This document shows, piece after piece, positions 11,735 to 47,101 of a stretch of DNA of 64,000 nucleotides. Both the position numbers and the translations under genes were made by a program. Within the stretch, counting starts at the first letter, position 1, and every line of letters begins with the position of its first letter. The notes beneath the pieces were generated by a model. The model did no database searches. It saw nothing but the letters and a program-made list of their open reading frames with translations, and was not told where the DNA came from. This DNA is from Fermentibacter sp963718745 [NCBI: Candidatus Fermentibacterota bacterium] (GTDB taxonomy: Bacteria > Fermentibacterota > Fermentibacteria > Fermentibacterales): assembly GCA_963718745.1 (NCBI GenBank), contig OY970370.1, positions 1,240,001 through 1,304,000 of the forward strand, written 5' to 3'.

Positions 11735-12062
11735 AAAAGCCTCCCGCCGAGAGGACATCCGTATTGTGCATGACAATGCCTTCATTCCGGCAGAGAGTCA
11801 AACCGACAGCGGTCCCGCAGCCGTACCCGGTTCCTGTTTTTCAACCCCGCATGATATTGGTCTGCTGCTTTTTCGTTCTGGACTGCACTGCAGGCGGGAT
11901 CCTTCCGGGAGCCTTCGAGACTCCGCGGCCGGGTGCAAGCGATTCGAATACCGGGAATACAGCTTTTCGACAAGGATCGGGCATGGCTTCGAGGCGTCCC
12001 CGAAGGGGCCGCCCCCAGGAACCGGCTATATTCCGCAACACACGGACAAGAGAGGAGGACTC
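11735..12062. other. divergent intergenic region
   Basis: 328 bases between the FG-GAP gene (minus) and the small gene at 12063 (plus). No coding-like frame is seen. TATATT at 12027-12032 could be a -10 box for the 12063 gene, but no good -35 is at the right distance. Confidence 0.35.
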
Positions 12063-12353
12063 ATGGAACCGCCCTTCGACAGAGAAAGCGGTATCACCGA
12101 CTCCTGTGCCGCCGGAATGGCGGCGATGCTCCCTCGTTGAGTCTCCTTCCTGATCCCGAGGGTCCCTCGGGAAAAGCTCTGCGACTTCACGGAGGGGATG
12201 CTCGACGCGCTGCTTGGAGGTGGCGGTCCGGACCTGTCCCGGGCTGAATACGACGGGCTGGCGGACTGCATCCGCCGCAAGCTGGAGGAGAACCGGCCGG
12301 CCGCTGACACGCCTGACCCGGAGCCCCGGCAGGCAGCGGCGGGAGGCTGTTGA
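12063..12353 (+). CDS. small hypothetical protein with in-frame UGA (candidate selenoprotein)
   Basis: A 97-codon frame starting at ATG 12063, which has a near-perfect ribosome binding site (GAGAGGAGGA, 3-5 bases spacing). TGA at 12138-12140 (codon 26) interrupts it. The frame then continues with strongly coding-like codons to TGA 12351-12353. The first part contains GITDSCAAGMAAML; the part after the UGA begins VSFLIPRVPREKLCDFTEGML, is predicted mostly helical, and the protein ends GGC. Cys residues at about 15 and 38 flank the UGA. A perfect 7-bp hairpin with loop GGUCC starts 13 nt after the UGA. The good start site with only 25 sense codons before the UGA, and conserved coding character after it, argue for read-through. 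No known family is recognised. Confidence 0.6.
12138..12172 (+). promoter_or_regulatory. UGA codon and SECIS-like hairpin
   Basis: UGA at 12138-12140. TCCCGAG (12154-12160) pairs perfectly with CTCGGGA (12166-12172) around the loop GGTCC (12161-12165). The loop starts 20 bases after the UGA. Stem length, loop length and the GGUC core match the element at 7898-7934, although the two genes are unrelated in sequence. Confidence 0.5.
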
Positions 12354-32384: not shown

Positions 32385-33893
32385 TCAGCGGCAGACCACG
32401 AGCCTGGCGGCGCCTGCAGAGCCTGCTCCGCCCGTGACCCTGACGAGATACACGCCCGGCTGGAGAGTGGATGCGTCGAGTCCGGCCGTGCCGTCCGCCT
32501 CCATGGAAACCGTCTCCACGATCCTTCCAGACAGGTCGTAGAGCACGACCAATGCCGGTGCTGCGCCGATCCCTGAAGCCCGCACGAATGCGACAGATCC
32601 GGCAGGCGAAGGGGAAACGCTGACCGATACGGTTTCCGGCGCCCCCTCTTCGATGCCCAGGCCTACCGGTACGGCGAGTGCAGCGATGAAGGCCACGGCG
32701 CTCCTGGCGACATTAGTGCCGAACGGGAAGCATTCGAGGTAGTTCTCGATCAGATCGGTGCTCGTGTGGTAGTACGGGTTCTCGGAGGCCATGCTCTCGA
32801 ACAGGCCCAGCGTGATGAATCCATTGTAGAAGAACGAGGTATCGTCACTCCCCGACACCCCGGAGAAGAAGAACTTGTCGAGATCCCCGACGTACGTTCC
32901 GGATATCTGGTCGTACAGCTCCAGCATCGGTTCGGATATCTCGGTGTACCCGATCATGATGTCGTCGAATACGATCGGCCCTATCTCGTGCACGTAGAGG
33001 ATCATGTCGAGATTAAGGTAGCACATGATGGAATCCCCGGCGGCCGCAGCCGCGGCAGCGTAGTATTCGCTGCCGACCAGATCGGGCTCCTCCGCTCCCC
33101 AGAGAGCAAACTTCACCGTGTACTCGAACTGATACGGCCGCATGACCCTTGCGGCCTCCAGCACGGCAGCGGATCCGGAGGCGTCGTCGTCGGCACCGGG
33201 ATAAATTCCGAAGCCGTCCTCCCCCGAATCGAGGTGGCTGCCGATCATCCAGTACCTGTCGGGGTACACCGTGCCGGGAATCGTGACGATGAGGTTCTGC
33301 GAGTATCCGCCGGGTGAGTCGACGAGAAATTCCTGAACCTCGACCTCGTACCCCATGCTCTCGAGCCGTGCGATCGTCCAGTCTCGCGCCGCGGGGAACG
33401 AGTCGCTGCTCCAGAACCTGTTCTCGAACTGCTCGAGCCTCCCGATGATGGAGATGAGCGAGTCCTGGCTCACGGCGGCCACGATCTGCTCGACCCATGG
33501 ATCGAATGACACGCTCTGCGGCAATACTGGCTGCATCGATCTGTCTACGAGGGGTCTCAGCCTGACCGTGGCCTCCGCGAACCTGGCGGTCCGCTCCGGA
33601 TCGAGCCTCACGAAGCTGACGCCGTCCCTCCGGTACAGCACCTCTCCGAAGTCGACGGCCGTGAGTGGACTGCGCAGGAAGCCCTCGGCTATCGCCGCAT
33701 AGTCCTCCGGTGATCCGGCTTCGGGATCGATGACGAGGCTCCCCTCCGGGGCCGGGCCGATCGCCAGGCGGAACCCGGCGCCCCGGAACACTAGAATGCT
33801 TCCGTCGGACAGCTGAGCGGCATCCTCCAGGACATGGAGCTGCGAAGGGGTACCTGCCAGGACGCAGGCAAGAATCAGCATCAATGCGCCCAT
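32385..33893 (-). CDS. secreted M28-family peptidase paralog with His-to-Asp change
   Basis: 502 residues from ATG 33893, whose A is the last base of the upstream stop codon, so translation is coupled. The layout is the same as the 8389 and 22183 paralogs: signal peptide (MLILACVLAGT), propeptide, M28 domain and sorting domain (VVLYDLSGRIVETVS, LQPGVYLVRV). Ligands seen: H220/D222 (GSHLDSG), D235 (GADDDASG), E268/E269 (GAEEPD) and D296 (NLDM). The final His is replaced by Asp (GSDDTSFF, D351) and the neighbourhood is less conserved than in the other copies, so catalysis is doubtful. Confidence 0.87.
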   Translation of the reverse strand: MGALMLILACVLAGTPSQLHVLEDAAQLSDGSILVFRGAGFRLAIGPAPEGSLVIDPEAGSPEDYAAIAEGFLRSPLTAVDFGEVLYRRDGVSFVRLDPERTARFAEATVRLRPLVDRSMQPVLPQSVSFDPWVEQIVAAVSQDSLISIIGRLEQFENRFWSSDSFPAARDWTIARLESMGYEVEVQEFLVDSPGGYSQNLIVTIPGTVYPDRYWMIGSHLDSGEDGFGIYPGADDDASGSAAVLEAARVMRPYQFEYTVKFALWGAEEPDLVGSEYYAAAAAAAGDSIMCYLNLDMILYVHEIGPIVFDDIMIGYTEISEPMLELYDQISGTYVGDLDKFFFSGVSGSDDTSFFYNGFITLGLFESMASENPYYHTSTDLIENYLECFPFGTNVARSAVAFIAALAVPVGLGIEEGAPETVSVSVSPSPAGSVAFVRASGIGAAPALVVLYDLSGRIVETVSMEADGTAGLDASTLQPGVYLVRVTGGAGSAGAARLVVCR

Positions 33894-34240
33894 CACGGCC
33901 CCTTTCTCAGCAGGACGACATAGATCCTGCCAGTCGACCAGAATCCCCCCGCTATGTCCTCGAGTCCGTCTCCGTTGAAGTCGGAGGTGCAGATCGCGGT
34001 GGGCGAGCCCTGCCCGGAGAGGATCGGAATCCCGGGCATGAAGCTCTGCTCGACGTAGTTAGTGTCGAGGCCGATCAGGCCGGGTGTGGACCAGCAGACG
34101 TGCGTCTCCTGCTGGAAGGCCGATCCCCATTCCTCGACCGGTCCGGGGAGGCCGGGTCCGGCGCTCCAGTCCGTCTGGGTGTACGTGGCGGCGGATGCGG
34201 CAAACGGCAGGAGAAGCATCGGAACCAGGATTCTACTCAT
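33893..34240 (-). pseudogene. internally deleted FG-GAP gene
   Basis: 115 residues. It has a signal peptide and the start of the FG-GAP family (YTQTDWSAGPG, then SDFNGDGLEDIAGGFWSTGR), then jumps straight to YVVLLR, which matches the last residues of the 23702 paralog (RVVLLR). About 490 residues of propeller and sorting domain are missing, as expected from an in-frame internal deletion. Ribosome binding site (AGGAGG) and start are intact, and the stop overlaps the M28 start (TGATG), so translation still couples to the peptidase. It may survive only as a leader for that gene, or as a short secreted peptide. Confidence 0.75.
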
Positions 34241-34527: not shown

Positions 34528-37191
34528 CTACTCCAGCAGCTGGAGGTCCTCGCCGATCCCGCCCGCTGCAGAGACGAACCACTCGCCGGTGAAGTACTTC
34601 GATGCAACCTCTCTTATGTCGTCGATACCGAGCGAGAGGATCTCGCGCAGATTCGAGAGGTCGGAGTCCAGAGGCTGGCCCAGTGTCTCCCTCGTTGCCA
34701 GGTATGTCGCCACTTCATCGTAAGTGTCGAATCCCAGGGAGTGTCGCCCGATATTCATGTACTGCCTCAGGACCAGTTCCTCCTCCAGCACTCCCTCGCC
34801 GGCCATCAGGGCGCATTCCTGCTGCGCGGCCTCGAGCGCCCTCGCAGCGAACGGGGCTCCGGTCATGAACATCGTGATGAAGATCGACGGTGACTCGTTG
34901 ATCGCGCTCTGCACGTATGCCCCGACCGAGTAGGTCAGCCCCTGCCTCTCGCGTAGGTTCATGCCCATCCGGGAGCTGATCCCGCCTCCGAGGATGGTCG
35001 TCATCATCCTGAAGGCCTGGTAGTCCGGGGAGCCATAGGCCGGAGCCTCGCAGCCGAACATCACGCCCGCCTCCATGCGCCCTTCGATGGTTTCGACGAG
35101 AGTTTCGCCAGGACCCTGCCTGAACACGAGCGGCTGCGGCGGAGGCAGCGGTTCGTCAGGATCGCTCCATTCCCCGAAGTTCTCCTCGACGAAACCGAGA
35201 GCCTCGCTGGGCGTGATGTCGCCCACCACCGCGACGACTGATCCCTCGGGCCTGACGCAGAGCCCGTACCAGTCCTTCATCTCCTGGTAGTCGATCCCGG
35301 CTATCGTCGCCGTGTCGGGCACCCATCTCGAGCCCTCCACGAACAGCACCGCATCGAAACGCGACGAGGCGAGGCTCATGGGATCCTCCCGCACGAGCCG
35401 GTACTCTTCCACCATCCGACCCCGCACCTGCTCGAAGTCGGCCTCGAGGAGGTTCGGGCGCATCAGCAGGTCGGCGAGCGATTCGAAGTAGAGCGCTGCG
35501 TTCTCGCTGGGCCCGTAGCAGTTGCCCATCGTGAACTCGGTTGCCGGACTCAGCCAGATCCCGCCGCCGGTGCGCATCAGCCGTGAGGAGAAGTCCGTCT
35601 GGCTCATGCCGTCCGCACCCCACTGCATCGTCTCCGCCACGAGCGCGGAGATGCCGGAACTGCCGTCGCTGGTCCTGCAGTCGCCCATAGGCACGGTGGC
35701 CATGATCTCGACGATCGGGAAGCTGTGGTCCTCCTTGACTAGCAAGGTGAGGCCGTTGTCCAGCTCGAACCTCACGGTGCCCTCGGAGGCCGAGCGCTCC
35801 GGTACCGCGAGTCCCGCCGGGTCGAGATCGAGCCCCTCCCAGTCCGTCACCTGGGGAACTTCGATGTCGGTGACGCCCTCAGTCGATGTCTCGCGCCCGG
35901 ATCCGCCCGGCTGTGCGCTAAGCACGGCTACCACCATGCGGTCGGGTGAGAAGTGCCGTGAGGCGACGTCCATGACCTGCTCCGGGGTCAGCGCCATAAC
36001 GCTCTCGCGCACCCTCCGGTAGCCCAGCGGGTCCCCGGTCTCGGTCATGCCGAAGGCGAGCTGCCTCGCCACGGAGAGAGGGTTGTTCTCGTCCATCACC
36101 TGACGGCCGGCGTAGTAGCCCGTGATCACGCCCAGCCTGTCGGGATCGAGGGGTTCGCGGGTCAGGCGGAAGACTTCATCGCACACGATCTCCTCGAGGC
36201 TGTCCAGGGTAACTCCGGGTGCGGGCTGGAGCCAGATGCCGAACGGACCCACGCCGCTGTTGTAAGGTGACATAGCCCAGGCTTCCGAGGCCAGCCCGGT
36301 CGCGACGAGGTTCTCCTGGAACCATGCGTTGCGGCTGCTGCTGAAGTAGGCGGCGATGGCTACGAGCGCCGGATAGTCCGGATCGGAGTAGCCGCAGCCG
36401 TCGAAGTAGATCAGCATCCTGTCGGCCTCGGCGGGGAACTCCACAGTCACTTCCGATCTGCCCGCGAGCGGAGGCGCCTCCTCGAACTCGATGTCCGGCG
36501 TGTTCCCGGCGGGGATGGGTCCGAACAGCCTCTCTATCGCTGCAAGGGCCTCGGCGCTGTCGAAGTCGCCTACTACCGCCAGGACTGCGTTACCGGGAGT
36601 GTACCAGGTCCGGTAGTAGTCCGAGACCTTTGCACTGTCGAGGGCGGCAATGGCCTCGCTGGTGCCTACGGGGCTCATCGAGTAGGGGGTGTCACCGTAG
36701 TAGATGGAGTCGGCAGCATCGAACAGCGCAGTGTAGGGACTGTCCTGGTTCAGGCGCCACTCGTCCGTGACGACCCCGATCTCCTGTGCCACTTCGTCAG
36801 GATCGAGCCGGAGATTGGCCATCCTGTCGCTCTCGATGGCAAGAGCCTCCTCGAGCGAGCCCGCGGGCATGTACAGGAAGTAGGAGGTCATGTCGCTCCC
36901 CGTGCCGCCGTTGGCCTGTCCGCCGTTCCTCTGCACGAGCTGCCAGAACCTGGGGCCCGGCATCGTGGGCGTGCCGTTGAACATCATGTGCTCGAGGAAG
37001 TGGCTTATGCCGGCTATTTCATCGGTCTCGTTGCGCGCTCCGACGTCGTATACGACCACCACGGCCACGGTGGGCGCGTAGTGCATCTCCTGGAGGATGA
37101 CTGTGAGCCCGTTGTCCAGCACCACGACCTCCGGGTCCGATCCCGAGGCGCTCAGTGCAACGGCGAGGCATAGCAGGATGACCTTCTTCAC
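34528..37191 (-). CDS. secreted M16 metalloprotease (two-domain, PqqL/insulinase type)
   Basis: 887 residues from GTG 37191. Signal peptide VILLCLAVALSASG. The N-terminal half has the zinc motif HFLEH (H64, E67, H68) in AGISHFLEHMMFNGT, with a downstream Glu in the expected helix. The second half (ISALVAETMQWG at the matching place) lacks the motif, as in fused M16 proteins where it only forms the chamber. It acts in the periplasm on peptides. It lies downstream of the small membrane gene 37321 and the RiPP-like operon on the same strand; because M16 proteases process some modified peptides (PqqF), a role there is possible but unproven. Confidence 0.88.
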   Translation of the reverse strand: MKKVILLCLAVALSASGSDPEVVVLDNGLTVILQEMHYAPTVAVVVVYDVGARNETDEIAGISHFLEHMMFNGTPTMPGPRFWQLVQRNGGQANGGTGSDMTSYFLYMPAGSLEEALAIESDRMANLRLDPDEVAQEIGVVTDEWRLNQDSPYTALFDAADSIYYGDTPYSMSPVGTSEAIAALDSAKVSDYYRTWYTPGNAVLAVVGDFDSAEALAAIERLFGPIPAGNTPDIEFEEAPPLAGRSEVTVEFPAEADRMLIYFDGCGYSDPDYPALVAIAAYFSSSRNAWFQENLVATGLASEAWAMSPYNSGVGPFGIWLQPAPGVTLDSLEEIVCDEVFRLTREPLDPDRLGVITGYYAGRQVMDENNPLSVARQLAFGMTETGDPLGYRRVRESVMALTPEQVMDVASRHFSPDRMVVAVLSAQPGGSGRETSTEGVTDIEVPQVTDWEGLDLDPAGLAVPERSASEGTVRFELDNGLTLLVKEDHSFPIVEIMATVPMGDCRTSDGSSGISALVAETMQWGADGMSQTDFSSRLMRTGGGIWLSPATEFTMGNCYGPSENAALYFESLADLLMRPNLLEADFEQVRGRMVEEYRLVREDPMSLASSRFDAVLFVEGSRWVPDTATIAGIDYQEMKDWYGLCVRPEGSVVAVVGDITPSEALGFVEENFGEWSDPDEPLPPPQPLVFRQGPGETLVETIEGRMEAGVMFGCEAPAYGSPDYQAFRMMTTILGGGISSRMGMNLRERQGLTYSVGAYVQSAINESPSIFITMFMTGAPFAARALEAAQQECALMAGEGVLEEELVLRQYMNIGRHSLGFDTYDEVATYLATRETLGQPLDSDLSNLREILSLGIDDIREVASKYFTGEWFVSAAGGIGEDLQLLE

Positions 37192-37320: not shown

Positions 37321-37569
37321 CTAGCTCTTCGCCAGGTACTTCCTCAGGAACTCGCCGAAGAGCAGGAGCATGGCGGAGCAGAACAGGCCCTTCGCGAAGA
37401 AGTAGAGGGAGAAGCCCATCTCGCTGGGATCGATGATGCTGACACCCTCCTGGAAACTGGTCTCTCCGCCGTCAAAGTTCAGGAAATAGCCGCCCAGCCA
37501 GATCCAGGTGCAGATCAGCAGGATGGCCAGTGCCACGATAGGGTTGATCCTCCTGAGGTAGAACTCCAT
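37321..37569 (-). CDS. small membrane protein
   Basis: 82 residues from ATG 37569 (GAAGGAGGTTCCG upstream). Two hydrophobic segments (PIVALAILLICTWIWLGGYFL and FSLYFFAKGLFCSAMLLLFGEFL) flank a periplasmic-looking loop with FDGGETSFQEGVSIIDPSEMG. It lies 115 bp downstream of the ABC transporter gene on the same strand. Function unknown. Confidence 0.7.
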   Translation of the reverse strand: MEFYLRRINPIVALAILLICTWIWLGGYFLNFDGGETSFQEGVSIIDPSEMGFSLYFFAKGLFCSAMLLLFGEFLRKYLAKS

Positions 37570-37684
37570 CGGAACCTCCTTCGGGTGCCTGTCCCCTCGC
37601 AAACCTCACGAAATACGGACCGGGCGGGAGCCTTCCTGACCATTGGAGGCTTCCCGGAGTCCGTCGATGCCCCATGCCGGAAAT

Positions 37685-39349
37685 CTACTGGACCGGTCGA
37701 CCCAGCGTGACGGTGCGGTCGGTTATATGGTCGATGTTCTCGTTGTGGGTGACGATAAGCACGATGGTCCCTTTTTCCGCAAGCTCCTTCACCGTCTCCA
37801 GGATCAGGTCCTCCGTGTCGACATCGAGCTGCGAGGTCGGCTCGTCGAGCAGGAGCACCTGCGGATTCCGGAGGATCACCGCTGCAAGGGCCAGGCGCTG
37901 CTTCTCGCCTCCGGAGATGTTCGATCCACCGTCGGTGATGTCGGTGGCGGCGGGTGACCCGGAATCGAGCCTGTCATCGAGGTGGAGCTCCCTGAACACG
38001 GAGGACAGCCGTTCACCATCGGGAGCGGAGCCCGACAGCATCTCCATGTTCCACTCGATCGAGCCGTTGAAGAATCTTATGTCCTGAGGCAGCAGGACCG
38101 CCGGATCGCCCAGGTCCCTCAGCCCGTCCACCGGCTTGCCGTTGACCAGGATGCTCCCGTTCGAGCGAGGATGGAGCCCGAACAGGGTCTTCAGGAGGGT
38201 CGTCTTGCCCGCCCCGCTCTGCCCCCGGATGGCAACGATCTCACCTTTCCTGGCGGAGAAGCTGACGTTCTCGAAGATCACATGGCCGTCTATCGACCCG
38301 GAAAGACCCATGACTTCGATCGTATCGACGCTCATCCCGGCTTTTCGATCCTGTCTTTCGGCAGCGGTTTCGGGCAGGTCCAGGAATTCCGCCATCCTGT
38401 CCAGGCTCGCGATGGAACCCTGGATCTTGCCTATGACCGTGGTCACGCCGCCGAGCCTTCCCGCGAAGAGGGCGAGATATGCAAGGAAGGCGACTACTGT
38501 CCCGACTTCGGCCGTGGCGATCCCGGGTGACCCTTCCGCATAGAGCAGGAATGCGATCATCCCTCCGATCGTGAGGACCGCCAGGCAGGCCATGTAGAAG
38601 AGCATCCTCAGCGTGTTCCGCAGGTCGACCCGCGTCGCCTGCCGCACCTTCCCGGAGACGTGGTCGCACATCCTCCCGTCCGCCGAGAACGCCCTCAACT
38701 GGTACTGAGAAACGACGAGATTGGTCGTGGCCCCCTCGAGCTGCGACCTCTTCTCCAGGATCTCCTTCATCAGCGCTCTGGACCTCCTGGCGACGAAGAT
38801 CCCCGCCGGCAGGAGAAGCAGGCCGGCTGCCACCAGCACGAGCGTCACGCCGGGAAGCAGGACGATCAGCATCACGAGGCTGGCCGCAAGGACCAGCACC
38901 GATTCGATCAGGCCGGGGACCTCTACCGAGAACAGCGTCGGCACGGGGTAGATCTCGGAGGCGATCCTCCTGTTCAGGTAGCCCGCCTCGAACGAGTCCA
39001 GGATCCGGAGGTCGACCCTGCTCATCTTCTCACAGACCCGGGGGATCCAGTTGTCGAGGAACGATCGGTCGAAGGTCTTCCTCAGGATCTGGTTGAAGAA
39101 CTGCACCAGAAGTGCACCGATCCCGACGAGAAGAAGCGTGCGGAGGCCGGAGAACGACAGGGTCACGGCGCTGGACTGGCCCAGGATGCCGGCGATGGAG
39201 TCCCCGAGGACGATCGGAGCCACGATCGAGAGACCGGAACCCGCCAGGACCATCAGGACAAGGATCGCCAGCGGGGCTCTGCCCCTCCGGAGGGTTTCGG
39301 AAACGATCCGCGCCCTCGTCCGGCTGCCCTGTGCCGACACCATCTTCAC
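37685..39349 (-). CDS. ABC exporter, fused membrane and ATPase domains
   Basis: 554 residues. Six membrane helices fill the first 300 residues. The ATPase domain has Walker A GQSGAGKT (near residue 387), signature ISGGEKQR and Walker B VLLLDEPTS. There is no N-terminal C39 peptidase domain, so it would export material without trimming it. The GTG start overlaps the stop of the propeller lipoprotein (GTGA), making it the last gene of the translationally coupled operon that begins with the 39-residue peptide. The likely role is export of the modified peptide; lipid or drug export is the alternative. Its base composition is host-like. Confidence 0.88.
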   Translation of the reverse strand: MKMVSAQGSRTRARIVSETLRRGRAPLAILVLMVLAGSGLSIVAPIVLGDSIAGILGQSSAVTLSFSGLRTLLLVGIGALLVQFFNQILRKTFDRSFLDNWIPRVCEKMSRVDLRILDSFEAGYLNRRIASEIYPVPTLFSVEVPGLIESVLVLAASLVMLIVLLPGVTLVLVAAGLLLLPAGIFVARRSRALMKEILEKRSQLEGATTNLVVSQYQLRAFSADGRMCDHVSGKVRQATRVDLRNTLRMLFYMACLAVLTIGGMIAFLLYAEGSPGIATAEVGTVVAFLAYLALFAGRLGGVTTVIGKIQGSIASLDRMAEFLDLPETAAERQDRKAGMSVDTIEVMGLSGSIDGHVIFENVSFSARKGEIVAIRGQSGAGKTTLLKTLFGLHPRSNGSILVNGKPVDGLRDLGDPAVLLPQDIRFFNGSIEWNMEMLSGSAPDGERLSSVFRELHLDDRLDSGSPAATDITDGGSNISGGEKQRLALAAVILRNPQVLLLDEPTSQLDVDTEDLILETVKELAEKGTIVLIVTHNENIDHITDRTVTLGRPVQ

Positions 39350-40464
39350 GGTTCTTCGAATTCCATCAGGAACAGCGTAGAGCCTCCGTCTTCACGGGTT
39401 TCGCAGGCGATGATGCCCGAGGAGCCGATCCTGATATCGAAGTGGCTGGTCGCGTCGGTAAGGGTCGGCGCACGGACGAACATCACGGTGTCCTCCAGGG
39501 AATGCGAGAGGACGAGGAAGGTGGGGTAGTCGGATGCGGCGGTCTCCAACCACACATTCCCGAGGGAGTCGACACCTATCGAAGCGACCTGGGGTTTGAA
39601 CTCGTCGATTTCGATCATCGAGGAGAACGCCCCCATAAGCGGATGGCTCTCGAGGGCGATGAGTTCGGACTCGACCTCTGCGGCGTTCCTCTCAACCCTA
39701 TCGCAGTCCTCGTTATAAGTCGCGAATTCATCACCCTCCCGATGGAAGCCAGTGATCGACATCCCGTCGACACTGCTCCGGGAGACGTACACGTCCCCGT
39801 TGGATTCGTCTGATGCATAGCGGAGGGCGCTCATAACACGGTAAAAAGAGTTGCCGACCTCCTCCAGATCCATTGGCTGGTCAAAGCAGTAATATTCAAC
39901 TAGGGATGCGCTCGAGTCTCCGTAAAGCCCAACGGACACTTCAGCAACCAGTGCGTTGTTATCGTCGAAGCTGTTCGCGGATCTGAGGCCGAGGAAACCC
40001 GAGCCACCGGCCGGACGGAGGTCGAGAGGCAAATTGCTATCGAAGTACGACAGTTCTTCCAGATATTCGCGGTCTGATCCGTAACAGACTAACCCGTTGC
40101 TTGCATCTACCACCCTAACTATTCCGCCACACGAAACCAGGCTGACGGGGTTCATCAGGTCGCCCGGAGCCTCGCCAGAAGACCCTAACGAAGAGGTCGA
40201 ATCTGTCTGCAGATCGATATAGAACACCTTGTGAGCGGCGTTATCGAGGACCAGCACCCGCCCTTGGTCCATTTGGAACTCGCCGATCGAGAGGACATCG
40301 CCAAGCGTGTCTGTGAAGATTGATAGAACAGTGTCCGACGGAGTAATAGTCCTTGCTGGATAGGCAGTCAGTTCGGGATGCTCCGCGCAGCCCAGCACCG
40401 ATACAAGCACGCAGAAGACAACCAGGGGCACCAGATGCTCTCCTCTGTGGTCTAGGCCCTTCAT
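39346..40464 (-). CDS. 6-bladed beta-propeller lipoprotein of the RiPP-like operon
   Basis: 372 residues with signal peptide and lipobox (VLGC, C26). Propeller units are visible: GEFQMDQGRVLVLDNAAHKVFYIDLQTDS, SSGEAPGDLMNPVSLVSCGGIVRVVDASNGLVCYGSD. The overall pattern matches the lipoprotein at 20299-21426. ATGA and GTGA overlaps join it to the B12 radical SAM gene before it and the ABC exporter after it. In this setting it may bind the peptide product or its target outside the membrane (inference). Codon use is less GC-rich than in the surrounding regions. Confidence 0.75.
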   Translation of the reverse strand: MKGLDHRGEHLVPLVVFCVLVSVLGCAEHPELTAYPARTITPSDTVLSIFTDTLGDVLSIGEFQMDQGRVLVLDNAAHKVFYIDLQTDSTSSLGSSGEAPGDLMNPVSLVSCGGIVRVVDASNGLVCYGSDREYLEELSYFDSNLPLDLRPAGGSGFLGLRSANSFDDNNALVAEVSVGLYGDSSASLVEYYCFDQPMDLEEVGNSFYRVMSALRYASDESNGDVYVSRSSVDGMSITGFHREGDEFATYNEDCDRVERNAAEVESELIALESHPLMGAFSSMIEIDEFKPQVASIGVDSLGNVWLETAASDYPTFLVLSHSLEDTVMFVRAPTLTDATSHFDIRIGSSGIIACETREDGGSTLFLMEFEEP

Positions 40465-41777
40465 CTCGTGACCTCCACAGGCATTGCCGCCCTCTCGTCT
40501 GAACCACCACCAGTTCCGAGCACTTCCTGAACCTTATGGACGGCATACATCATCATGCCTATCAGTTCGCTCCTCGTCATGCTGGCACTGGGGAAGCAAA
40601 GTGGATACTCATTTTCCTGCTCCCACCAGTTCGAGACGTTCCCGTAGCCGAACTCTCCTGAACGCTGGTAGATCGCAGTGCCCGGAAACGGTCTGAGAAA
40701 CCCGAACTCGATGACCCTCACTCCCAGATCTGCGAGACCAACTGCCCGAGCGATCCTCTTCCGGACAGAGTCGACCGTGTCTCCAGGAAGGCCAATCATT
40801 AGAGAGACCGCGACATCGATACCAAGATCGACGGCATCTCCCAGCACCCTCGGGATATCTCCGGATCTGATGTTCTTGCCGATTAGATCAAGAGTATCCT
40901 GCTCGAAACACTCCACTCCGAACTGGATCTCTGAGCAACCAGCTTCTCTCATCATCTGCAGTTTGTGACGATCAACGCAATCCAGTCGAGACTCACAAAA
41001 CCAATTGAGGTTGTTCTCACCGAGAAACCTACACAGAGCTCCCAGACGGCCGGACATCTGCGTAAAGGAATCGTCCAGAACTGCAATTTTTTGTGCCATG
41101 AACTCACTTTTAAGTAAGGCGATCTCGCTCTCTATTGATTCGATACTTCTGATATGGATCAACCCGTTGTTGATAGCTGGAGAGGAGCAGAAAACACATC
41201 GTCCAGGGCATCCGCGTGCTGTCATAATGGTGAAGGGATACTGGTACTCCTTCAGGTCGACACATCGTCTGTCTGGGAAGGAATCCGGGAAATTGAGATC
41301 TTCTGGCCTTACGAGGGGTGCATTCACGATCATGCATTCGTCCCGACATACGTCGGATCTCTCCAGTTCCTCCGCGATCGACAGAATTAGATCCTGAAAG
41401 TACCTATCCCCGGGGCCTCTAAACACCACATCGGCACCCAGGGTTCTGGCGCACGATTCTGATGCCAGAGTCGCATGCGGCCCTCCTACTACGATTCTGG
41501 TCCTCTTCTCGGCGATCTTTCTGCATCGGGCGATCAGTCTCGAGAGGACATAGTGCTGTTCGGTGAGGGTTGTGAAGCAGAGGATATCCGAATTCTCCGA
41601 AGCGATTCTTGATGCAACCGATTCAACAGAGTCGATGCTGTAGGGATCAATCATCTCATCGAGCAACACAAACTGCAGTCTCTCTTTTAGTTTAAGTTTT
41701 GCAGCCAAGTACATCAAACCGAGTGGTGGCATCTGTTTCGTTGCCGACCGGTGCAAGTTCACCAGTGCGACTCTCAC
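40461..41777 (-). CDS. B12-binding-domain radical SAM enzyme
   Basis: 438 residues from GTG 41777, which overlaps the upstream stop (GTGA). The N-terminal cobalamin-binding-type Rossmann domain (VRVALVNLHRSATKQMPPLGLMYLAAKL, IVVGGPHATL) lacks the DxHxxG lower-ligand motif, as many family members do. The radical SAM cluster is C190, C194, C197 (GCPGRCVFC). Later motifs are FCESRLDCV, EIQFGVECFEQDTL and VSLMIGLPGDT. Family members carry out C- or P-methylation and other rearrangements. Position between the SPASM maturase and the exporter suggests it modifies the operon's peptide. Confidence 0.9.
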   Translation of the reverse strand: MRVALVNLHRSATKQMPPLGLMYLAAKLKLKERLQFVLLDEMIDPYSIDSVESVASRIASENSDILCFTTLTEQHYVLSRLIARCRKIAEKRTRIVVGGPHATLASESCARTLGADVVFRGPGDRYFQDLILSIAEELERSDVCRDECMIVNAPLVRPEDLNFPDSFPDRRCVDLKEYQYPFTIMTARGCPGRCVFCSSPAINNGLIHIRSIESIESEIALLKSEFMAQKIAVLDDSFTQMSGRLGALCRFLGENNLNWFCESRLDCVDRHKLQMMREAGCSEIQFGVECFEQDTLDLIGKNIRSGDIPRVLGDAVDLGIDVAVSLMIGLPGDTVDSVRKRIARAVGLADLGVRVIEFGFLRPFPGTAIYQRSGEFGYGNVSNWWEQENEYPLCFPSASMTRSELIGMMMYAVHKVQEVLGTGGGSDERAAMPVEVTR

Positions 41778-43105
41778 TTCGCCCAATAACCCTTCACTAT
41801 CTGGCAGAAAGGGTTCTCCCCGGTGATGCTTCCCGTATTCCAGTATGCTGCGGTCCTGCACCCACCGCCGCATTGCGCTTTGATGTCGCAGTCCCTGCAG
41901 TGATCAAGACGATCAACCGTCACTTTCCTGATAGAATTGAGGATCGGTGACTCTCTCCAAGTATTCCTGAGTTCCGAAATCGTCGTTCGGCCACTCACAG
42001 CCCCAAGACGGAATTCATCAGAAAGGAGCGCAGAACATGGATACAACGAGCCATCAGGCTCTATATGAAGAATCCCTGTTCCAAGATAGCAGAAGTGCCG
42101 TCTTTCCTGCGAGTTGACAGGGGTATCCGATGGATTACCTAGCCCATCGACGAACTGGACTGGGATTCCTGTCTCATTCGAAAGCTTCTCAGCGAGTAAG
42201 GAAGCTTGCATTACTTCGGTTGGAGTCGTCTGAACAGTTGAGCAGCCCGGATGTACGTTCATGAGAGGGCCGAGCCTTATCGAAGATGCTCCAGATTTGG
42301 AAGATAGCTTGAAGATCGTATCAAGATCGCCAATGGTATTGCAGGTCAGAACGACTCCGACTGTTACTCGTATTCCCTCTTCGCAGGCAGTCCGGATTGC
42401 GTCGAATACCCTCATTGCTAAGTCCCGGTCTAAGTCCGGACCGGAATCATAGACAGCGTTCAACCCTATCTGGAGATTTCTAACACCTCCTTGTCCCAGA
42501 GAGCGCAGAATCGCCCTATCGAGTAGTATGCCATTAGTGGAAATCGTTACACTATTTACCATGGATGCTGCATGCACGGCCAGATCCACCGTGTGCTCAA
42601 AAAGAAACGGCTCCCCGCCAGTGATGTTCAGAAGAGCAATATCCATCTTTGAGAGGGTCTCGATGACAGCAGAATACTCAGCCCGACCGAGAGCTTGCCC
42701 ACATGAAACGCCTTCTCGGTAACAGTGTCTGCACTCTCGGTTGCATGCATCTGTGACGGCAAGGCTTACCATGACGGGAGTCGAGAAGGAATCTGCAGCA
42801 AAAGGGAGATTCTGTGCCAAACGTGCCTTTCGCGGTTGCTCTAAACAAGTGCTTCCAAGGGTAATGATCCCGTCGCGAGTCATCATCATTACTCGTATTA
42901 GATTGCATGCAAGATCGGAATCGGAGATGGAGATTCGTTTCGCAATTGCATATGCTGTCTCGCACCCGTCGATTTCCTTCAGCAAATCTAAATCGCTTGC
43001 GCTTACTGTACTGAAGAAGCCTTTCCCGCTGATGAAGATCCCTCCCTCGGCCTCTGTACGTAGAACGCTTCCTTCTGGAAGAATCGGGATCAGTTGTGAG
43101 TTCAT
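41774..43105 (-). CDS. radical SAM/SPASM peptide maturase with N-terminal RRE-like domain
   Basis: 443 residues. The first ~95 residues resemble PqqD (GGIFISGKGFFSTVSASDLDLLKEIDG), a peptide-recognition fold. The radical SAM motif is C121-x3-C125-x2-C128 (CNRECRHC), followed by ITGGEPF and STNG. The C-terminal SPASM region supplies Cys for auxiliary iron-sulfur clusters (YPCSAL, HCRDCDIKAQCGGGC, NPFC). SPASM maturases make sactipeptide thioethers, C-C bonds and similar changes in ribosomal peptides. ATGA overlap with the PqqD-like gene before it and GTGA with the B12 enzyme after it show coupled translation. Confidence 0.92.
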   Translation of the reverse strand: MNSQLIPILPEGSVLRTEAEGGIFISGKGFFSTVSASDLDLLKEIDGCETAYAIAKRISISDSDLACNLIRVMMMTRDGIITLGSTCLEQPRKARLAQNLPFAADSFSTPVMVSLAVTDACNRECRHCYREGVSCGQALGRAEYSAVIETLSKMDIALLNITGGEPFLFEHTVDLAVHAASMVNSVTISTNGILLDRAILRSLGQGGVRNLQIGLNAVYDSGPDLDRDLAMRVFDAIRTACEEGIRVTVGVVLTCNTIGDLDTIFKLSSKSGASSIRLGPLMNVHPGCSTVQTTPTEVMQASLLAEKLSNETGIPVQFVDGLGNPSDTPVNSQERRHFCYLGTGILHIEPDGSLYPCSALLSDEFRLGAVSGRTTISELRNTWRESPILNSIRKVTVDRLDHCRDCDIKAQCGGGCRTAAYWNTGSITGENPFCQIVKGYWAK

Positions 43106-43371
43106 ATCGCTTCTTCCAGTGAGACAAGAAGACCCGACTGTTCCAGGCAGGCGAGGAACTCTGCAACATCCTCAGGGTGAAGTTGCAGATTACCTCTATC
43201 GTCGAGCAGCTTTGTCTGTAGTTCTCGAAGCGATACTGGGCCGGCGTTGAGATGGGAAATGATCAGGCAGGCGGACTCGTTATACTTCCGCAAAGCCTTC
43301 TTTTCGGTATCGATTATCATTCTCTCATCGGCCAGGAAAATGGTCGAAGACTTGAGACAATAGCTCTTCAC
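43102..43371 (-). CDS. PqqD-like RiPP recognition element protein
   Basis: 89 residues from GTG 43371, chosen over upstream options because GGGAGGC lies just before it and the length is that of PqqD (about 90). The pattern STIFLADERMIIDTEKKALRKYNESACLIISHLNAGPVSLRELQTKLLDDRG..., ending in EDVAEFLACLEQSGLLV, matches the winged-helix PqqD fold that binds leader peptides and hands them to the radical SAM enzyme. It follows the 39-residue peptide gene by 65 bases containing a hairpin, and overlaps the SPASM gene by ATGA. Confidence 0.82.
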   Translation of the reverse strand: MKSYCLKSSTIFLADERMIIDTEKKALRKYNESACLIISHLNAGPVSLRELQTKLLDDRGNLQLHPEDVAEFLACLEQSGLLVSLEEAI

Positions 43372-43389
43372 AAGCCTCCCGTCTTGGAG

Positions 43390-43420
43390 GCGCAGGGGAC
43401 ACCTCCGGCGCCCCCTGCGC
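43390..43420 (-). promoter_or_regulatory. intercistronic hairpin between peptide gene and PqqD-like gene
   Basis: A perfect 9-bp stem (GCGCAGGGG/CCCCTGCGC) with a 13-base loop lies in the 65-base gap. Without a T-run it may act as a partial terminator or as an mRNA-stability element that keeps peptide expression above that of the enzymes, an arrangement common in RiPP operons. Confidence 0.6.
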
Positions 43421-43436
43421 TCCACAGTATTCCGAC

Positions 43437-43556
43437 CTATGGGTGCGGAATAGCCGCGAAGTTCAGCAAACCGCAAAGGATGTACAATGCGATGCATTTT
43501 GCGGTGTCCCCAGGATCGACATACTCGATCGCAACTTCGGCCGGTTTCTCGATCAT
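43437..43556 (-). CDS. 39-residue candidate RiPP precursor peptide
   Basis: A short gene with the best ribosome binding site of the operon (GGAGGTGA, 4 bases before ATG 43556). The peptide starts MIEKPAEVAIEYVDPGD; this half is charged and leader-like, and a KP-x-V element near the start is seen in other RRE-bound leaders. The second half is hydrophobic with Cys21 and Cys28 and ends FAAIPHP. It is the first gene of the operon PqqD-SPASM-B12 enzyme-lipoprotein-ABC, exactly where a precursor is expected. The alternative is a small membrane peptide or translation leader. No homology search was possible. Confidence 0.75.
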   Translation of the reverse strand: MIEKPAEVAIEYVDPGDTAKCIALYILCGLLNFAAIPHP

Positions 43557-43592
43557 CGATTCACCTCCTTCAAGCATTCAATGCCAATATGA

Positions 43593-43620
43593 ACTATTTC
43601 TATCCTGTCATCTCTGTCAA
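43593..43620 (-). promoter_or_regulatory. promoter of the RiPP-like operon
   Basis: TTGACA (43615-43620, perfect -35) is followed after 16 bases by AATAGT (43593-43598, four of six matches to TATAAT). Predicted transcription start is near 43586, leaving a leader of about 30 bases before the precursor ATG. Confidence 0.6.
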
Positions 43621-45066: not shown

Positions 45067-45135
45067 GGGGTCAGACTACTGACAGAGGTTTCCTACAAAA
45101 ATGTAGAGGCTTCAAGTTTGTAAATAGACTGACCG
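45067..45135. repeat. inverted-repeat element, copy 2 (69 bp)
   Basis: Left arm GGGGTCAGACTACTGACAG; right arm ATAGACTGACC is partly degenerate. The interior (GGTTTCCTACAAAAATGTAG) is shared with copies 3 and 5. It lies directly upstream of the HEAT-repeat gene. Confidence 0.8.
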
Positions 45136-45156: not shown

Positions 45157-46953
45157 CTAGCGCCCGGATGGGATGACCGTGAAGCGCCCCGTGGCCTCCT
45201 GATCTCCAGCCCGGACCACCACAAGATAGACCCCGGGAGTCAGGTCCTGGAGCCCGATCGATTGCCAGCCCTGCTGATACGTGGTTTCTGAAGTCTGGAC
45301 CAGCCTTCCCGCGACATCGAACACCGAGACGCACACCACAGCATCGACTGGAAGCCCCACGACCAGCCCGGGTGCTCCCGAACAGGGATTCGGGGTCACC
45401 GGAAGCAGCTCGAGGGAGGATGGCATATCTCCCTCGCCTGTTCCGAATGCGTTCCACTGAACCGTGACATCCTTCAGCACCGGCGAGACTTCCTCGTCGT
45501 CCGGCACGAGGATGGCCCGGTACTGGAAGTAGTCAGTGCCTTCGTCGAGGATTCCGCCGAGGCTGCCAGGGGTCCAGAGGGTGTCGGACCACGCTCCCAT
45601 CGAACCGGGATCCTCCGAGGACCGGACCAGGAAACCCAGTGCCGTCATCCCGGGAGTCGAGTACGACCAGAGTAGGTAGTTCCACACGTAGTTGTCTCCG
45701 GCGTCGAGAATGCTCGAAGTGAGGCTGCCGGCGGGCGCGAGGCTCCACCAGTAGATGTCGTCCTCGTACCAGGAGCAGCCGGCTGCATCCGTCCATCCAT
45801 CCCCGTCGAAATCGGCGTTCGTTACGTAACTGGCGGAGGCGTAGCCTGCCATCTCCTTGAGAATGTGCGCCTCCCAGGAGGTCCCCTGTCCGTCCGCGTT
45901 CTCCAGCCAGCAGAAGCAGCCGGGAGAGAAGGTGGTGGCCGAGATGTCGAAGTCGCCGTCCATGTCGAGATCGGCGATGTCCAGGATGCTGTTGAACTCC
46001 ATGCCCAGTCCGGCATCAATAGTTCTGCGCGTCCAGCTCCTGCCCGAGCCGTCCAGGTTCTCCCACCAGGACATCCCGGTGCCGGAGAAGTCGCGGGTGC
46101 CTATGACGTCGGAGTCCCCGTCCCCGTCGAGATCGGTCGTGTAGATCATCATCGCGCTGTCGAAGGAGGCGTCGATCGTCACCCGGAGCCAGTCGGTGCC
46201 CAGCCCGTCCCTGTTCTCGAGCCAGATCATGTCGCTGTCGTACACCGCCGCGGCCAGGATGTCGCAGTCTCCGTCACCGTCGATGTCGTCTGCTGATACG
46301 CCCATGTAGCCGTGTGAAGCGGCAGCAAAACCGTGCACCTCCCAGTCCAGTGCGCTGCCGTCCAGGTTCTCCCACCATAGAATCACTCCGTCGTTGTAGA
46401 TGAAGTCGGCGCAGACCACGTCACAGTCACCATCTCCATCGATATCCGCGGGAAACGGAGCGACGGACCTGGACATGGAGCCATCGATCTGGTGGACGGA
46501 CCATTCGGTGCCGGTCCCGTCGTTCTCGAGCCAGAGGACCTCCTCGTTCGTCGAAGCGAGTACGTCCAGGTCCGAGTCGGCATCCAGGTCGACCATGACG
46601 GGATCGATCCCGCCGACGACCGTGATCGGGTGTTCGATCCATTCAGTGCCGCAGAAGTCGGCGTTCTCCCACCACGAGGTGCTTGTGTACCTCGATCCGA
46701 GTAGATCGATGTCACCGGGTGCGAGACAGTCGATGTCCTCGGACTCCCCTTCGATGAGGTGTTCGATGTCCGGATCGACGAGGAGCTGGCCCGGGACCGA
46801 GTCCCACAGCACCCTGGCGCCCGAGAGGAAGCTATCTCCCAAGTCCGTGACCGGGCCGGCCACACCGGGTCCGCCCGACCAGTCGGTCTGATATGCGGAA
46901 TCGCCTGCGGAGAGGGAGATCGCGAAGAGGATCGGCAGCGTGAACAGCCTCAT
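45157..46953 (-). CDS. secreted FG-GAP repeat protein with sorting domain
   Basis: 598 residues. Signal peptide PILFAISLSAGDS, then AYQTDWSGGPGVAGPV, the N-terminal motif shared with 9911, 23702 and 33893. VCBS units follow (VDLDADSDLDVLAS, ADIDGDGDCDVVCADF, DDIDGDGDCDILAAAV, TDLDGDGDSDVIGTRDF, ADLDMDGDFDISATTF, ADFDGDGWTDAAGCSW), each followed by W[WL]EN-type strands. Then a beta region with SSEDPGSMGAWSDTLW and a sorting domain (VSVFDVAGRLVQ, LTPGVYLVVV). Unlike its relatives it has no adjacent M28 gene. Confidence 0.87.
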   Translation of the reverse strand: MRLFTLPILFAISLSAGDSAYQTDWSGGPGVAGPVTDLGDSFLSGARVLWDSVPGQLLVDPDIEHLIEGESEDIDCLAPGDIDLLGSRYTSTSWWENADFCGTEWIEHPITVVGGIDPVMVDLDADSDLDVLASTNEEVLWLENDGTGTEWSVHQIDGSMSRSVAPFPADIDGDGDCDVVCADFIYNDGVILWWENLDGSALDWEVHGFAAASHGYMGVSADDIDGDGDCDILAAAVYDSDMIWLENRDGLGTDWLRVTIDASFDSAMMIYTTDLDGDGDSDVIGTRDFSGTGMSWWENLDGSGRSWTRRTIDAGLGMEFNSILDIADLDMDGDFDISATTFSPGCFCWLENADGQGTSWEAHILKEMAGYASASYVTNADFDGDGWTDAAGCSWYEDDIYWWSLAPAGSLTSSILDAGDNYVWNYLLWSYSTPGMTALGFLVRSSEDPGSMGAWSDTLWTPGSLGGILDEGTDYFQYRAILVPDDEEVSPVLKDVTVQWNAFGTGEGDMPSSLELLPVTPNPCSGAPGLVVGLPVDAVVCVSVFDVAGRLVQTSETTYQQGWQSIGLQDLTPGVYLVVVRAGDQEATGRFTVIPSGR

Positions 46954-47032: not shown

Positions 47033-47101
47033 GGGGTCAGACTACTGACAAAGGTTTCCTACAAAAAAAGAGAGGCTTCAGCTTGAAAGAAGCTCGACCC
47101 C
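47033..47101. repeat. inverted-repeat element, copy 3 (69 bp)
   Basis: Left arm GGGGTCAGACTACTGACA; right arm AGCTCGACCCC is degenerate. Interior as in copy 2 (GGTTTCCTACAAAAAA, then AGAGGCTTCA). It lies between the 45157 FG-GAP gene and the ferredoxin gene. Confidence 0.75.

What the first reader, a model, noticed from the sequence alone, without database searches (positions are those of the whole stretch)
37685..43620. Candidate new RiPP operon: 39-residue peptide, RRE, SPASM maturase, B12 radical SAM, propeller lipoprotein, ABC exporter
Six genes on the minus strand. The five after the peptide gene overlap by ATGA or GTGA at every junction (43105/43102, 41777/41774, 40464/40461, 39349/39346), so they are translationally coupled. 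The operon starts with a perfect TTGACA promoter, a tiny gene with the best ribosome binding site in the region, and a hairpin before the enzyme genes. A SPASM maturase, a free PqqD-like protein and a PqqD-like N-terminus on the maturase are established signs of peptide modification. The B12 enzyme suggests a second modification such as methylation. A 6-bladed propeller lipoprotein inside such an operon is unusual, and I do not recognise the combination as a named class.
Basis: partly seen in the sequence, partly recalled or inferred. Interest (0 to 1): 0.92.

Follow-up and report, generated by a model that had tools for sequence, protein, structure and literature searches.

The report
Fermentibacter radical-SAM peptide operon
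A little-known sludge bacterium carries an intact six-gene unit that appears to make, chemically modify and export a small peptide, and two relatives carry the same peptide, which points to an undescribed peptide natural product.

Summary
On the minus strand of a Candidatus Fermentibacter relative lie six intact genes: 39-residue precursor (43556-43437), PqqD-like RRE (43371-43102), radical-SAM/SPASM enzyme, B12-binding radical-SAM enzyme, propeller lipoprotein and ABC half-exporter. A strong RNA hairpin follows the precursor; the other four junctions are 4-bp overlaps. Two of 42 Fermentibacterota genomes carry the precursor: G003 beside RRE and a cut SPASM gene, G006 with all six genes on two contigs. 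The precursor is better conserved than its enzymes (79% against 54-56% to G003; 17 of 22 base changes in 37 codons at third positions), with K-P-A-E in the leader half and Y-x-L-C-G-L-L-N in the core. The RRE model (pLDDT 90) matches leader-bound lasso RREs; the lipoprotein model has 24 strands and a lipobox. Among the best NCBIfam models shown, no named maturase cut-off is met. Low G+C of the window, G003, G041 and G042 copies suggests lateral transfer. G042 pairs the same exporter family and a propeller-like lipoprotein with another radical-SAM enzyme and a Cys-rich peptide. Best reading: a new radical-SAM RiPP family; chemistry and role remain inference.

The parts
43437..43556 (-). Precursor peptide gene, 39 aa; leader-like half with invariant K4 P5 A6 E7, core-like half with invariant Y25, L27-C28-G29-L30-L31-N32, A34
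   Evidence: homologues at 84% (37 aa) in G003 and 61% (32 aa) in G006; 17 of 22 differences in 37 codons at third positions
43561..43570 (-). Ribosome-binding site AAGGAGGTGA four bases before the precursor ATG
   Evidence: read directly
43386..43424 (-). G+C-rich RNA hairpin between precursor and RRE, without a T-run; attenuator or processing site by inference
   Evidence: -39 kcal/mol for the 67 bases folded, z -4.2, 0 of 200 shuffles as stable; hairpins at the same place in G003 (z -1.3, 25 of 200 shuffles as stable) and G006 (z -1.7, 12 of 200), so not significant there on their own; no Rfam match
43102..43371 (-). PqqD-like RiPP recognition element, 89 aa, GTG start
   Evidence: Pfam PqqD below cut-off here (18.6 bits, cut-off 23.4) and in G003 (19.3), above it in G006 (26.7); model pLDDT 90, best PDB hit 6jx3_B lasso RRE with leader
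41774..43105 (-). Radical SAM/SPASM peptide maturase, 443 aa; CxxxCxxC at 121-128, SPASM cysteines 339, 357, 403, 406, 412, 416, 434
   Evidence: closest NCBIfam model mycofactocin MftC, 104.5 bits against a cut-off of 265
40461..41777 (-). B12-binding-domain radical SAM enzyme, 438 aa; CxxxCxxC at 190-197; putative C-methyltransferase or other B12 radical chemistry
   Evidence: 41-42% identical orthologue in G006; nearest solved sequence 6fd2, an apramycin oxidoreductase
39346..40464 (-). Lipoprotein (lipobox Cys26), predicted six-bladed beta-propeller
   Evidence: junctions; Cys26 invariant in 16 of 16 aligned; model pLDDT 86, 24 strands, hits to NHL and Drp35 propellers; no Pfam family above cut-off
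37685..39349 (-). ABC half-exporter (membrane part and ATPase fused), no C39 peptidase among Pfam matches; ATPase motifs present by eye
   Evidence: orthologues at 45-51% in 4 of 42 genomes

Best explanation
An intact biosynthesis and export operon for a radical-SAM RiPP of a family not described in what I searched. SHOWN by sequence: gene order, overlapping genes, conserved precursor, RRE fold (model), iron-sulfur motifs and B12-binding domain, lipobox, exporter domains. INFERRED: the hairpin after the precursor lets much more precursor than enzyme be made; the free RRE holds the conserved leader (K-P-A-E...V...G) and hands the precursor to the SPASM enzyme, which makes one radical crosslink in the conserved Y-x-L-C-G-L-L-N-[F/Y]-A core, most likely involving Cys28; the B12 enzyme adds a C-methyl or similar group on an unactivated carbon of the core; the ABC protein exports the hydrophobic product; the propeller lipoprotein binds it outside the inner membrane as receptor, chaperone or immunity protein. 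Leader removal is by an enzyme outside the operon. Because the precursor changes more slowly than its enzymes, I favour one fixed product with a dedicated partner (signal or cofactor-like) over a fast-changing bacteriocin.
For: Pfam domains on maturase, B12 enzyme and exporter. Precursor, RRE and SPASM gene in the same order in G003 and in G006, whose second contig carries the rest of SPASM, then B12 enzyme, lipoprotein and exporter. Precursor identity 79% to G003 against 56% (RRE) and 54% (first 193 codons of SPASM), although third positions differ at 49%, 70% and 61%. RRE fold. Exporter family in only 4 of 42 genomes; next to it lies a propeller-type lipoprotein clearly in G006, by a weak match in G041 (6.6e-5) and by resemblance only in G042 (19% in alignment, DUF5128 at E 0.1), where another radical-SAM enzyme and a Cys-rich small peptide precede it.
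Against: No product or expression data. RRE is below Pfam's cut-off in the window and G003 copies. Few copies: 2 of 42 genomes carry the precursor, one with a cut SPASM gene and one split over two contigs; the two genomes closest by the M16 gene, G001 and G002 (83 and 77%), have no precursor. The hairpins of G003 and G006 are not significant alone. The G042 lipoprotein gives no tblastn match to the window's at E 1. No protease in the operon. Crosslink site and B12 chemistry are guesses. The slower change of the precursor rests on 37-39 codons and three species, and its third positions also differ somewhat less (49% against 61-70%).
Confidence: 0.75

Rival explanations
1. A cofactor pathway of the mycofactocin/PQQ type: RRE and SPASM enzyme cut and crosslink a peptide tail into a small redox cofactor, with the B12 enzyme decorating it.
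For: Closest NCBIfam model of the SPASM enzyme is mycofactocin MftC (104.5 bits); 5 of the 6 plasmid rows listed are annotated mftC; a free PqqD-like partner; precursor strongly conserved. From recall: the mycofactocin precursor ends in C-G-V-Y, and this core holds C-G-L-L-N.
Against: MftC cut-off (265) not met; none of the operon's other genes is of mycofactocin or PQQ type by Pfam or NCBIfam; a dedicated exporter and an extracytoplasmic lipoprotein sit in the same operon, odd for a cytosolic cofactor.
Confidence: 0.15
2. A bacteriocin-type RiPP: the same steps as the best explanation, but the exported peptide is antimicrobial, with exporter and lipoprotein giving self-immunity (this overlaps the best explanation except in role).
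For: Exporter plus lipoprotein; low-G+C, patchy, apparently laterally spread cassette; G042 pairs the same exporter family and a propeller-like lipoprotein with a quite different Cys-rich peptide.
Against: Within the family the precursor is more conserved than its enzymes, unlike the usual diversification of bacteriocins (recalled).
Confidence: 0.25
3. The propeller lipoprotein serves the B12 enzyme as a corrinoid binder, like surface lipoprotein BtuG, rather than the peptide.
For: BtuG1 and BtuG2 with cyanocobalamin (8ptd, 8ptf) are among the fold matches (ranks 30 and 36).
Against: TM-scores 0.39, below the top NHL and Drp35 rows; the G042 cassette has a propeller-like lipoprotein and no B12-enzyme match; in 14 other loci with such lipoproteins (L110-L123) no B12-enzyme match lies within the flank held.
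Confidence: 0.05
4. The 39-residue ORF is not a substrate but a chance or leader-type ORF, and the two radical-SAM enzymes act on a small molecule.
For: B12 radical-SAM relatives are common in these genomes (41 of 42 at 1e-20) and may serve lipids or small molecules (inference).
Against: ORF conserved by protein sequence with third-position changes in G003 and found again in G006, both times next to the RRE; RRE fold.
Confidence: 0.05

Closest known systems
Mycofactocin pathway (MftA/B/C)
   Same: SPASM radical-SAM enzyme whose best NCBIfam model is MftC; small precursor and free RRE-like partner MftB (recalled; mftB is named beside mftC in plasmid rows)
   Different: Far below MftC's cut-off; adds a B12 radical-SAM enzyme, a lipoprotein and an exporter
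PQQ pathway (PqqA/D/E)
   Same: Free PqqD-type RRE working with a SPASM enzyme (PqqD as trans-RRE: PMC8326336, passages seen)
   Different: PqqE and PqqD equivalog cut-offs not met; different precursor and neighbours
ApyD-type B12 radical-SAM RiPP clusters (Burkholderia)
   Same: RRE-dependent RiPP cluster with a B12 radical-SAM enzyme and overlapping genes (PMC10635010, passages seen); ApyD model scores 92.7 bits
   Different: ApyD cut-off 750 not met; partners there are MNIO, P450 and methyltransferase, here a SPASM enzyme, propeller lipoprotein and exporter
Sactipeptide/ranthipeptide systems (SkfB, CteB, PapB)
   Same: SPASM or twitch radical-SAM maturase and RRE; SkfB is the top PDB sequence hit
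   Different: Only one Cys is invariant in this precursor; maturase cut-offs not met
Bacteroidales radical-SAM RiPP clusters (PMC10352776, passages seen)
   Same: Radical-SAM RiPP with ABC exporter
   Different: There most of the nine clusters have an exporter with a C39 peptidase and GG-motif precursors; here neither; the words propeller and lipoprotein do not occur in that paper's main text

Membership tests
RiPP (general) | Short ribosomal precursor beside modifying enzymes | tested here: met
   39-aa ORF with RBS, conserved in 2 of 42 genomes beside RRE and SPASM
RiPP (general) | Leader-binding RRE | tested here: met
   Fold match of the model to 6jx3, 5v1v, 5v1u and TruD, with only 6jx3 at E under 0.001 and ToxR-type domains mixed in; Pfam PqqD above cut-off in 1 of 3 orthologues. 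Binding itself not tested
RiPP (general) | Modified peptide product | not testable with these tools
   needs mass spectra
Mycofactocin | MftC equivalog score of 265 bits | tested here: not met
   104.5 bits
PQQ | PqqE (381.35) and PqqD (46) equivalog scores | tested here: not met
   PqqE 73.5 bits; no PqqD match for the window RRE, 15.5 bits for the G006 one
SCIFF/ranthipeptide, sactipeptide | Maturase cut-off (SCIFF 425, PapB 340, SkfB 300) and Cys-rich core | tested here: not met
   45.8, 61.2 and 43.8 bits; a single invariant Cys
SCIFF/ranthipeptide, sactipeptide | Thioether crosslink | not testable with these tools
   chemistry
RiPP B12 radical-SAM C-methyltransferases (rSAM_ocin_1, ApyD) | Family cut-offs 281.85 and 750 | tested here: not met
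   69.4 and 92.7 bits
Radical SAM/SPASM proteins | CxxxCxxC core and SPASM cysteine pattern | tested here: met
   SPASM domain model TIGR04085 52.2 bits, cut-off 27
Six-bladed propeller lipoprotein | Lipobox and 24-strand propeller fold | tested here: met
   a model, not a solved structure
Six-bladed propeller lipoprotein | Pfam DUF5128 (6-bladed beta-propeller) cut-off | tested here: not met
   no DUF5128 match for the window protein; E 0.1, 12.2 of 22.9 bits for the G042 one
C39-peptidase exporter (PCAT) | N-terminal C39 domain and GG leader | tested here: not met
   no C39 among the 12 Pfam matches; no GG in the precursor

The most novel reading that the evidence does not exclude
Founding case of a RiPP family of Fermentibacterota in which one near-fixed hydrophobic core (Y-x-L-C-G-L-L-N-aromatic-A) is crosslinked by a SPASM enzyme, then modified at carbon by a B12 radical-SAM enzyme, and delivered by an exporter to its own propeller lipoprotein; exporter plus propeller lipoprotein is a delivery-and-reception unit that also serves unrelated precursors (G042), so the 2 to 25 matches to this lipoprotein per genome of the phylum could include receptors for a family of peptide messages.
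Probability: 0.25. Interest if true: 0.7.

Novelty: new variant of a known kind. Interest (0 to 1): 0.5.

Why it matters
Radical-SAM RiPPs are a known kind, but a SPASM enzyme, a B12 radical-SAM enzyme, a free RRE and a propeller lipoprotein with its own exporter in one compact operon, in a phylum for which my paper searches listed no RiPP study by title, gives a small, well bounded system in which two radical enzymes seem to share one conserved ten-residue core. It also offers a handle on the many propeller lipoproteins of this phylum, whose role is not known to me.

Tried and rejected
Genome-collection scan with the SPASM protein found no relative (20 pattern matches, none confirmed), so the second scan used the neighbouring M16 peptidase and named the host group. 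Viral contigs: nothing for SPASM or for the precursor alignment (45 pattern matches, none confirmed). Plasmids: 34 records with SPASM matches, every one under 60% identity, 6 rows listed, 5 of them annotated mftC. Other phyla with the SPASM protein: 0 of 14 genomes from various phyla (E 1e-20); at E 1e-25, 0 of 147 (phylum of L053, WOR-3), 0 of 80 (L056, Krumholzibacteriota), 16 of 132 (L023, Zixibacteriota) and 2 of 395 drawn from a larger group (L078, Bacteroidetes). Those 18 matches (best 5e-33) cover only residues from 81 onward at 25-29% identity, and 8 of the 18 loci, as many as were fetched, show no other operon gene in the flanks held; set aside as generic. The query rings in G003 and G006, so these negatives are weak but not empty.

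Set aside: the G019 precursor match (E 0.004, inside a 241-codon frame) as chance and the G032 SPASM match (27%, residues 95-434) as generic. An N-terminal RRE on the SPASM enzyme was suspected, but residues 1-105 match no Pfam family, and residues 1-100 alone match only G003 among the loci searched; not claimed. M16 peptidase (34528-37191) as leader protease: rejected as part of the operon, since Ca. F. daniensis has it at 83% without the operon beside it; it stays possible as a general protease. Promoter scan: 3 sites against 3.6 expected, so the -35-like TTGACA at 43620 is not evidence. RRE profile against PDB sequences: nothing below E 0.029, top rows urease, TfuB1 (an RRE) at 0.045, so sequence alone does not show the RRE.

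Papers: searches (NVEALA, none; five terms, none). Seen: listings, one abstract with outline and passages; no paper was read whole.

Own errors: the precursor was given one base out of frame and the RRE with its upstream extension; the precursor was repeated in frame (Pfam; NCBIfam), the RRE likewise. In one search the line '43102 43436' is out of frame and was ignored.
Full report
Host and setting. The window has 62% G+C and no tRNA gene. Its M16 peptidase at 34528-37191 is 83% identical over its whole length to that of Candidatus Fermentibacter daniensis (L001; the next best of 79 loci is at 36% or less), so the window comes from a relative of that genus. In the 10 kb of L001 upstream of that peptidase gene the only significant match to an operon protein is two ABC proteins at 23-27% identity. 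No whole genome is held for the window.

The operon. Six genes run on the minus strand. Precursor 43556-43437, 39 aa, behind AAGGAGGTGA. Then 65 bases with a hairpin (43424-43386), -39 kcal/mol for the stretch folded, z -4.2, none of 200 shuffles as stable. Then the RRE from GTG 43371; this start is chosen because the G003 orthologue has an ATG at the matching place and G006 a TTG. RRE/SPASM, SPASM/B12, B12/lipoprotein and lipoprotein/exporter each overlap by four bases, so the five downstream genes look translationally coupled. None is broken.

What the proteins are. Maturase: Radical_SAM and SPASM domains, CxxxCxxC at 121-128 and SPASM-region cysteines at 339, 357, 403, 406, 412, 416 and 434. 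Of 72 NCBIfam models matched 25 are shown; MftC is best, and only the general SPASM domain model passes its cut-off. B12 enzyme: B12-binding and Radical_SAM domains, CxxxCxxC at 190-197; best models HpnJ, PhpK, ladderane B12 and ApyD, far below cut-off (25 of 36 shown); nearest solved sequence 6fd2, an apramycin oxidoreductase. RRE: AlphaFold model of mean pLDDT 90, four strands, three helices and a last strand; the best PDB matches are lasso RREs solved with their leader (6jx3 at 7.5e-4; 5v1v and 5v1u at about 0.01-0.06), with ToxR DNA-binding domains of the same winged-helix shape mixed in among ranks 3 to 17. Lipoprotein: lipobox Cys26, invariant in 16 of 16 aligned relatives; model pLDDT 86 with 24 strands of three or more residues; NHL, Drp35 and designed Pizza propellers in the best rows, TM-scores to the query 0.36-0.54, so the fold class is clear and the exact relative is not. 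Exporter: fused membrane and ATPase parts without a C39 match, with ATPase motifs (named from recall) conserved in four aligned copies.

Relatives in the phylum. I searched 42 genomes of the phylum of L001. Precursor: 3 of 42 at E 0.1 or better; G003 (9e-18) and G006 (1e-5) accepted, G019 (0.004) set aside. SPASM: 3 of 42 at 1e-20, of which G003 and G006 accepted and G032 set aside. In G003 the order is precursor, RRE, SPASM; the SPASM frame ends at a stop 193 codons in, about 100 bases from the contig end, and likeness to the window's gene ends there, so this copy is cut, by an insertion or by an assembly fault. No further SPASM match at 1e-20 and only generic B12 and lipoprotein matches and no exporter match at 1e-40 were found in G003. 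In G006 contig C25 holds precursor, RRE and SPASM to about residue 312, where the contig ends, and contig C155 begins with SPASM from residue 312, followed by B12 enzyme (42%, 3.6e-101), lipoprotein (37%, 2.6e-58) and exporter (49%, 2.5e-165). That these are one operon is inference from the matching cut point. B12 and lipoprotein relatives are common otherwise (41 of 42 genomes at 1e-20; 42 of 42 at 1e-5), but the G006 copies stand far above the rest (next best 3.2e-40 and 1.4e-25).

The exporter family is rare: 4 of 42 at 1e-40 (G006, G018, G041, G042). In G042 it follows a lipoprotein and a radical-SAM enzyme, with a 42-aa peptide holding four cysteines just upstream of that enzyme. The G042 enzyme matches Radical_SAM (2.5e-18) but no Pfam SPASM; its C-terminal cysteines look SPASM-like by eye. 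The G042 lipoprotein gives no tblastn match to the window's at E 1; I call it propeller-like from its lipobox, length, 19% identity in alignment and DUF5128 at E 0.1. In G041 a lipoprotein ORF with a weak match (6.6e-5) precedes the exporter, and no SPASM or B12 match at E 0.5 or better lies in the 18 kb searched. In G018 the exporter lies on a 4.6-kb contig beside a transposase-like fragment (by eye) and an ORF with a lipobox that looks like an adaptor protein (by eye), without a match to the propeller lipoprotein; one search counts two stops in its match, while the ORF list shows one open frame of 552 codons.

Conservation. Three precursors share 16 invariant positions: K4 P5 A6 E7, V13, G16, K20, I22, Y25, L27 C28 G29 L30 L31 N32, A34. 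Window to G003: precursor 79% identical over 39 aligned residues, RRE 56%, SPASM (first 193 codons) 54%, with third-position differences of 49%, 70% and 61%. Over the 37 residues of the BLAST match 19 codons are the same, 12 synonymous and 6 changed. So the precursor is translated and under purifying selection, and is held tighter than its enzymes; its third positions also differ somewhat less, so a part of the gap may not be protein selection. Window to G006: precursor 54%, RRE 34%, B12 42%, lipoprotein 36%, exporter 48%.

Lateral spread. G+C falls from 62% to 50-53% over precursor, RRE, SPASM and B12 genes, is 57% in the lipoprotein and 63% in the exporter, with third-position G+C of 51-65%, 69% and 85% (the M16 neighbour: 85%). 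The G003 copy is also low (50% against 61% for its contig), as are G042 (41% against 61%), G041 (47% against 63%) and the G018 exporter (40% against 50% for the rest of its short contig). The G006 copy is near its contigs (57-63% against 63%). G001 and G002, closest by the M16 gene (83 and 77%), lack the precursor, while G003 and G006 have only 37-38% M16 matches. I read this as transfer between hosts, with an exporter gene in the window that is older in its host or of other origin.

Mechanism. Shown: parts and their motifs. Inferred: RRE-guided crosslinking of the core by the SPASM enzyme, C-methylation or related chemistry by the B12 enzyme (B12 radical-SAM enzymes methylate sp3 carbons in RiPPs, e.g. 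PoyC: PMC5682303, passages seen; ApyD: PMC10635010, passages seen), export, and binding by the lipoprotein. PqqD as a free RRE for a SPASM enzyme is the precedent (PMC8326336, passages seen).

Novelty. No NCBIfam model matches the three precursors or the G042 peptide; no Pfam model matches the window or G042 peptide. Paper searches for Fermentibacter with RiPP (3 papers) or with biosynthetic gene cluster (1 paper) listed no study of such an operon by title; in the one opened, Fermentibacterota is named once, in a list of taxa. Searches for propeller with radical SAM/SPASM gave none or five papers off topic by title. The library lacks most subscription journals, so absence is weak. I rate it a new variant of a known kind.

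Noticed in passing
L142:7774-12042 (G042, minus strand): A second cassette: 42-aa peptide with four Cys, radical-SAM enzyme, propeller-like lipoprotein, exporter of the same family; 41% G+C against 61% in the rest of the locus.
   Followed up: partly
L142 about 11800-12150: A perfect 18-bp inverted repeat (TGGGATAGGAGTCCCTAC) flanks the G042 peptide gene, arms 178 bases apart; 0 of 300 first-order Markov shuffles had one as long (largest 11).
   Followed up: partly
window 43395-43511: Nine bases inside the precursor gene (GGGGACACC) are complementary to the 3' arm of the hairpin, so two RNA folds could compete; 56 of 300 shuffles had a perfect repeat as long, so possibly chance.
   Followed up: no
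42 Fermentibacterota genomes: Matches to the propeller lipoprotein number 2 to 25 per genome in 42 of 42 (E 1e-5); in 6 of 14 further loci examined (L111, L113, L114, L115, L122, and weakly L116) an ABC ATPase domain matches close by.
   Followed up: partly
L087:1-111 (G003): The SPASM gene is cut near a contig end; what follows the stop does not resemble the gene; cause not resolved.
   Followed up: no
window 45078-45103 and 47044-47069: A short intergenic sequence (ACTGACAGAGGTTTCCTACAAAAATG) occurs twice, 3 mismatches in 26; none expected by chance; a 20-base part has no exact match in 150 fetched loci.
   Followed up: partly
window 37321-37602: A 93-aa ORF, hydrophobic by eye, between the exporter and the M16 peptidase; no relative at E 0.05 in L001 and L080-L150 (a 31-residue match in L142 at E 0.006 in the smaller search); an immunity protein or an unrelated host gene.
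   Followed up: partly
window 9911-11785, 33893-34240, 45157-46953: By eye these ORFs share an N-terminal QTDWS-GPG motif; that at 33893-34240 looks like a shortened copy.
   Followed up: no
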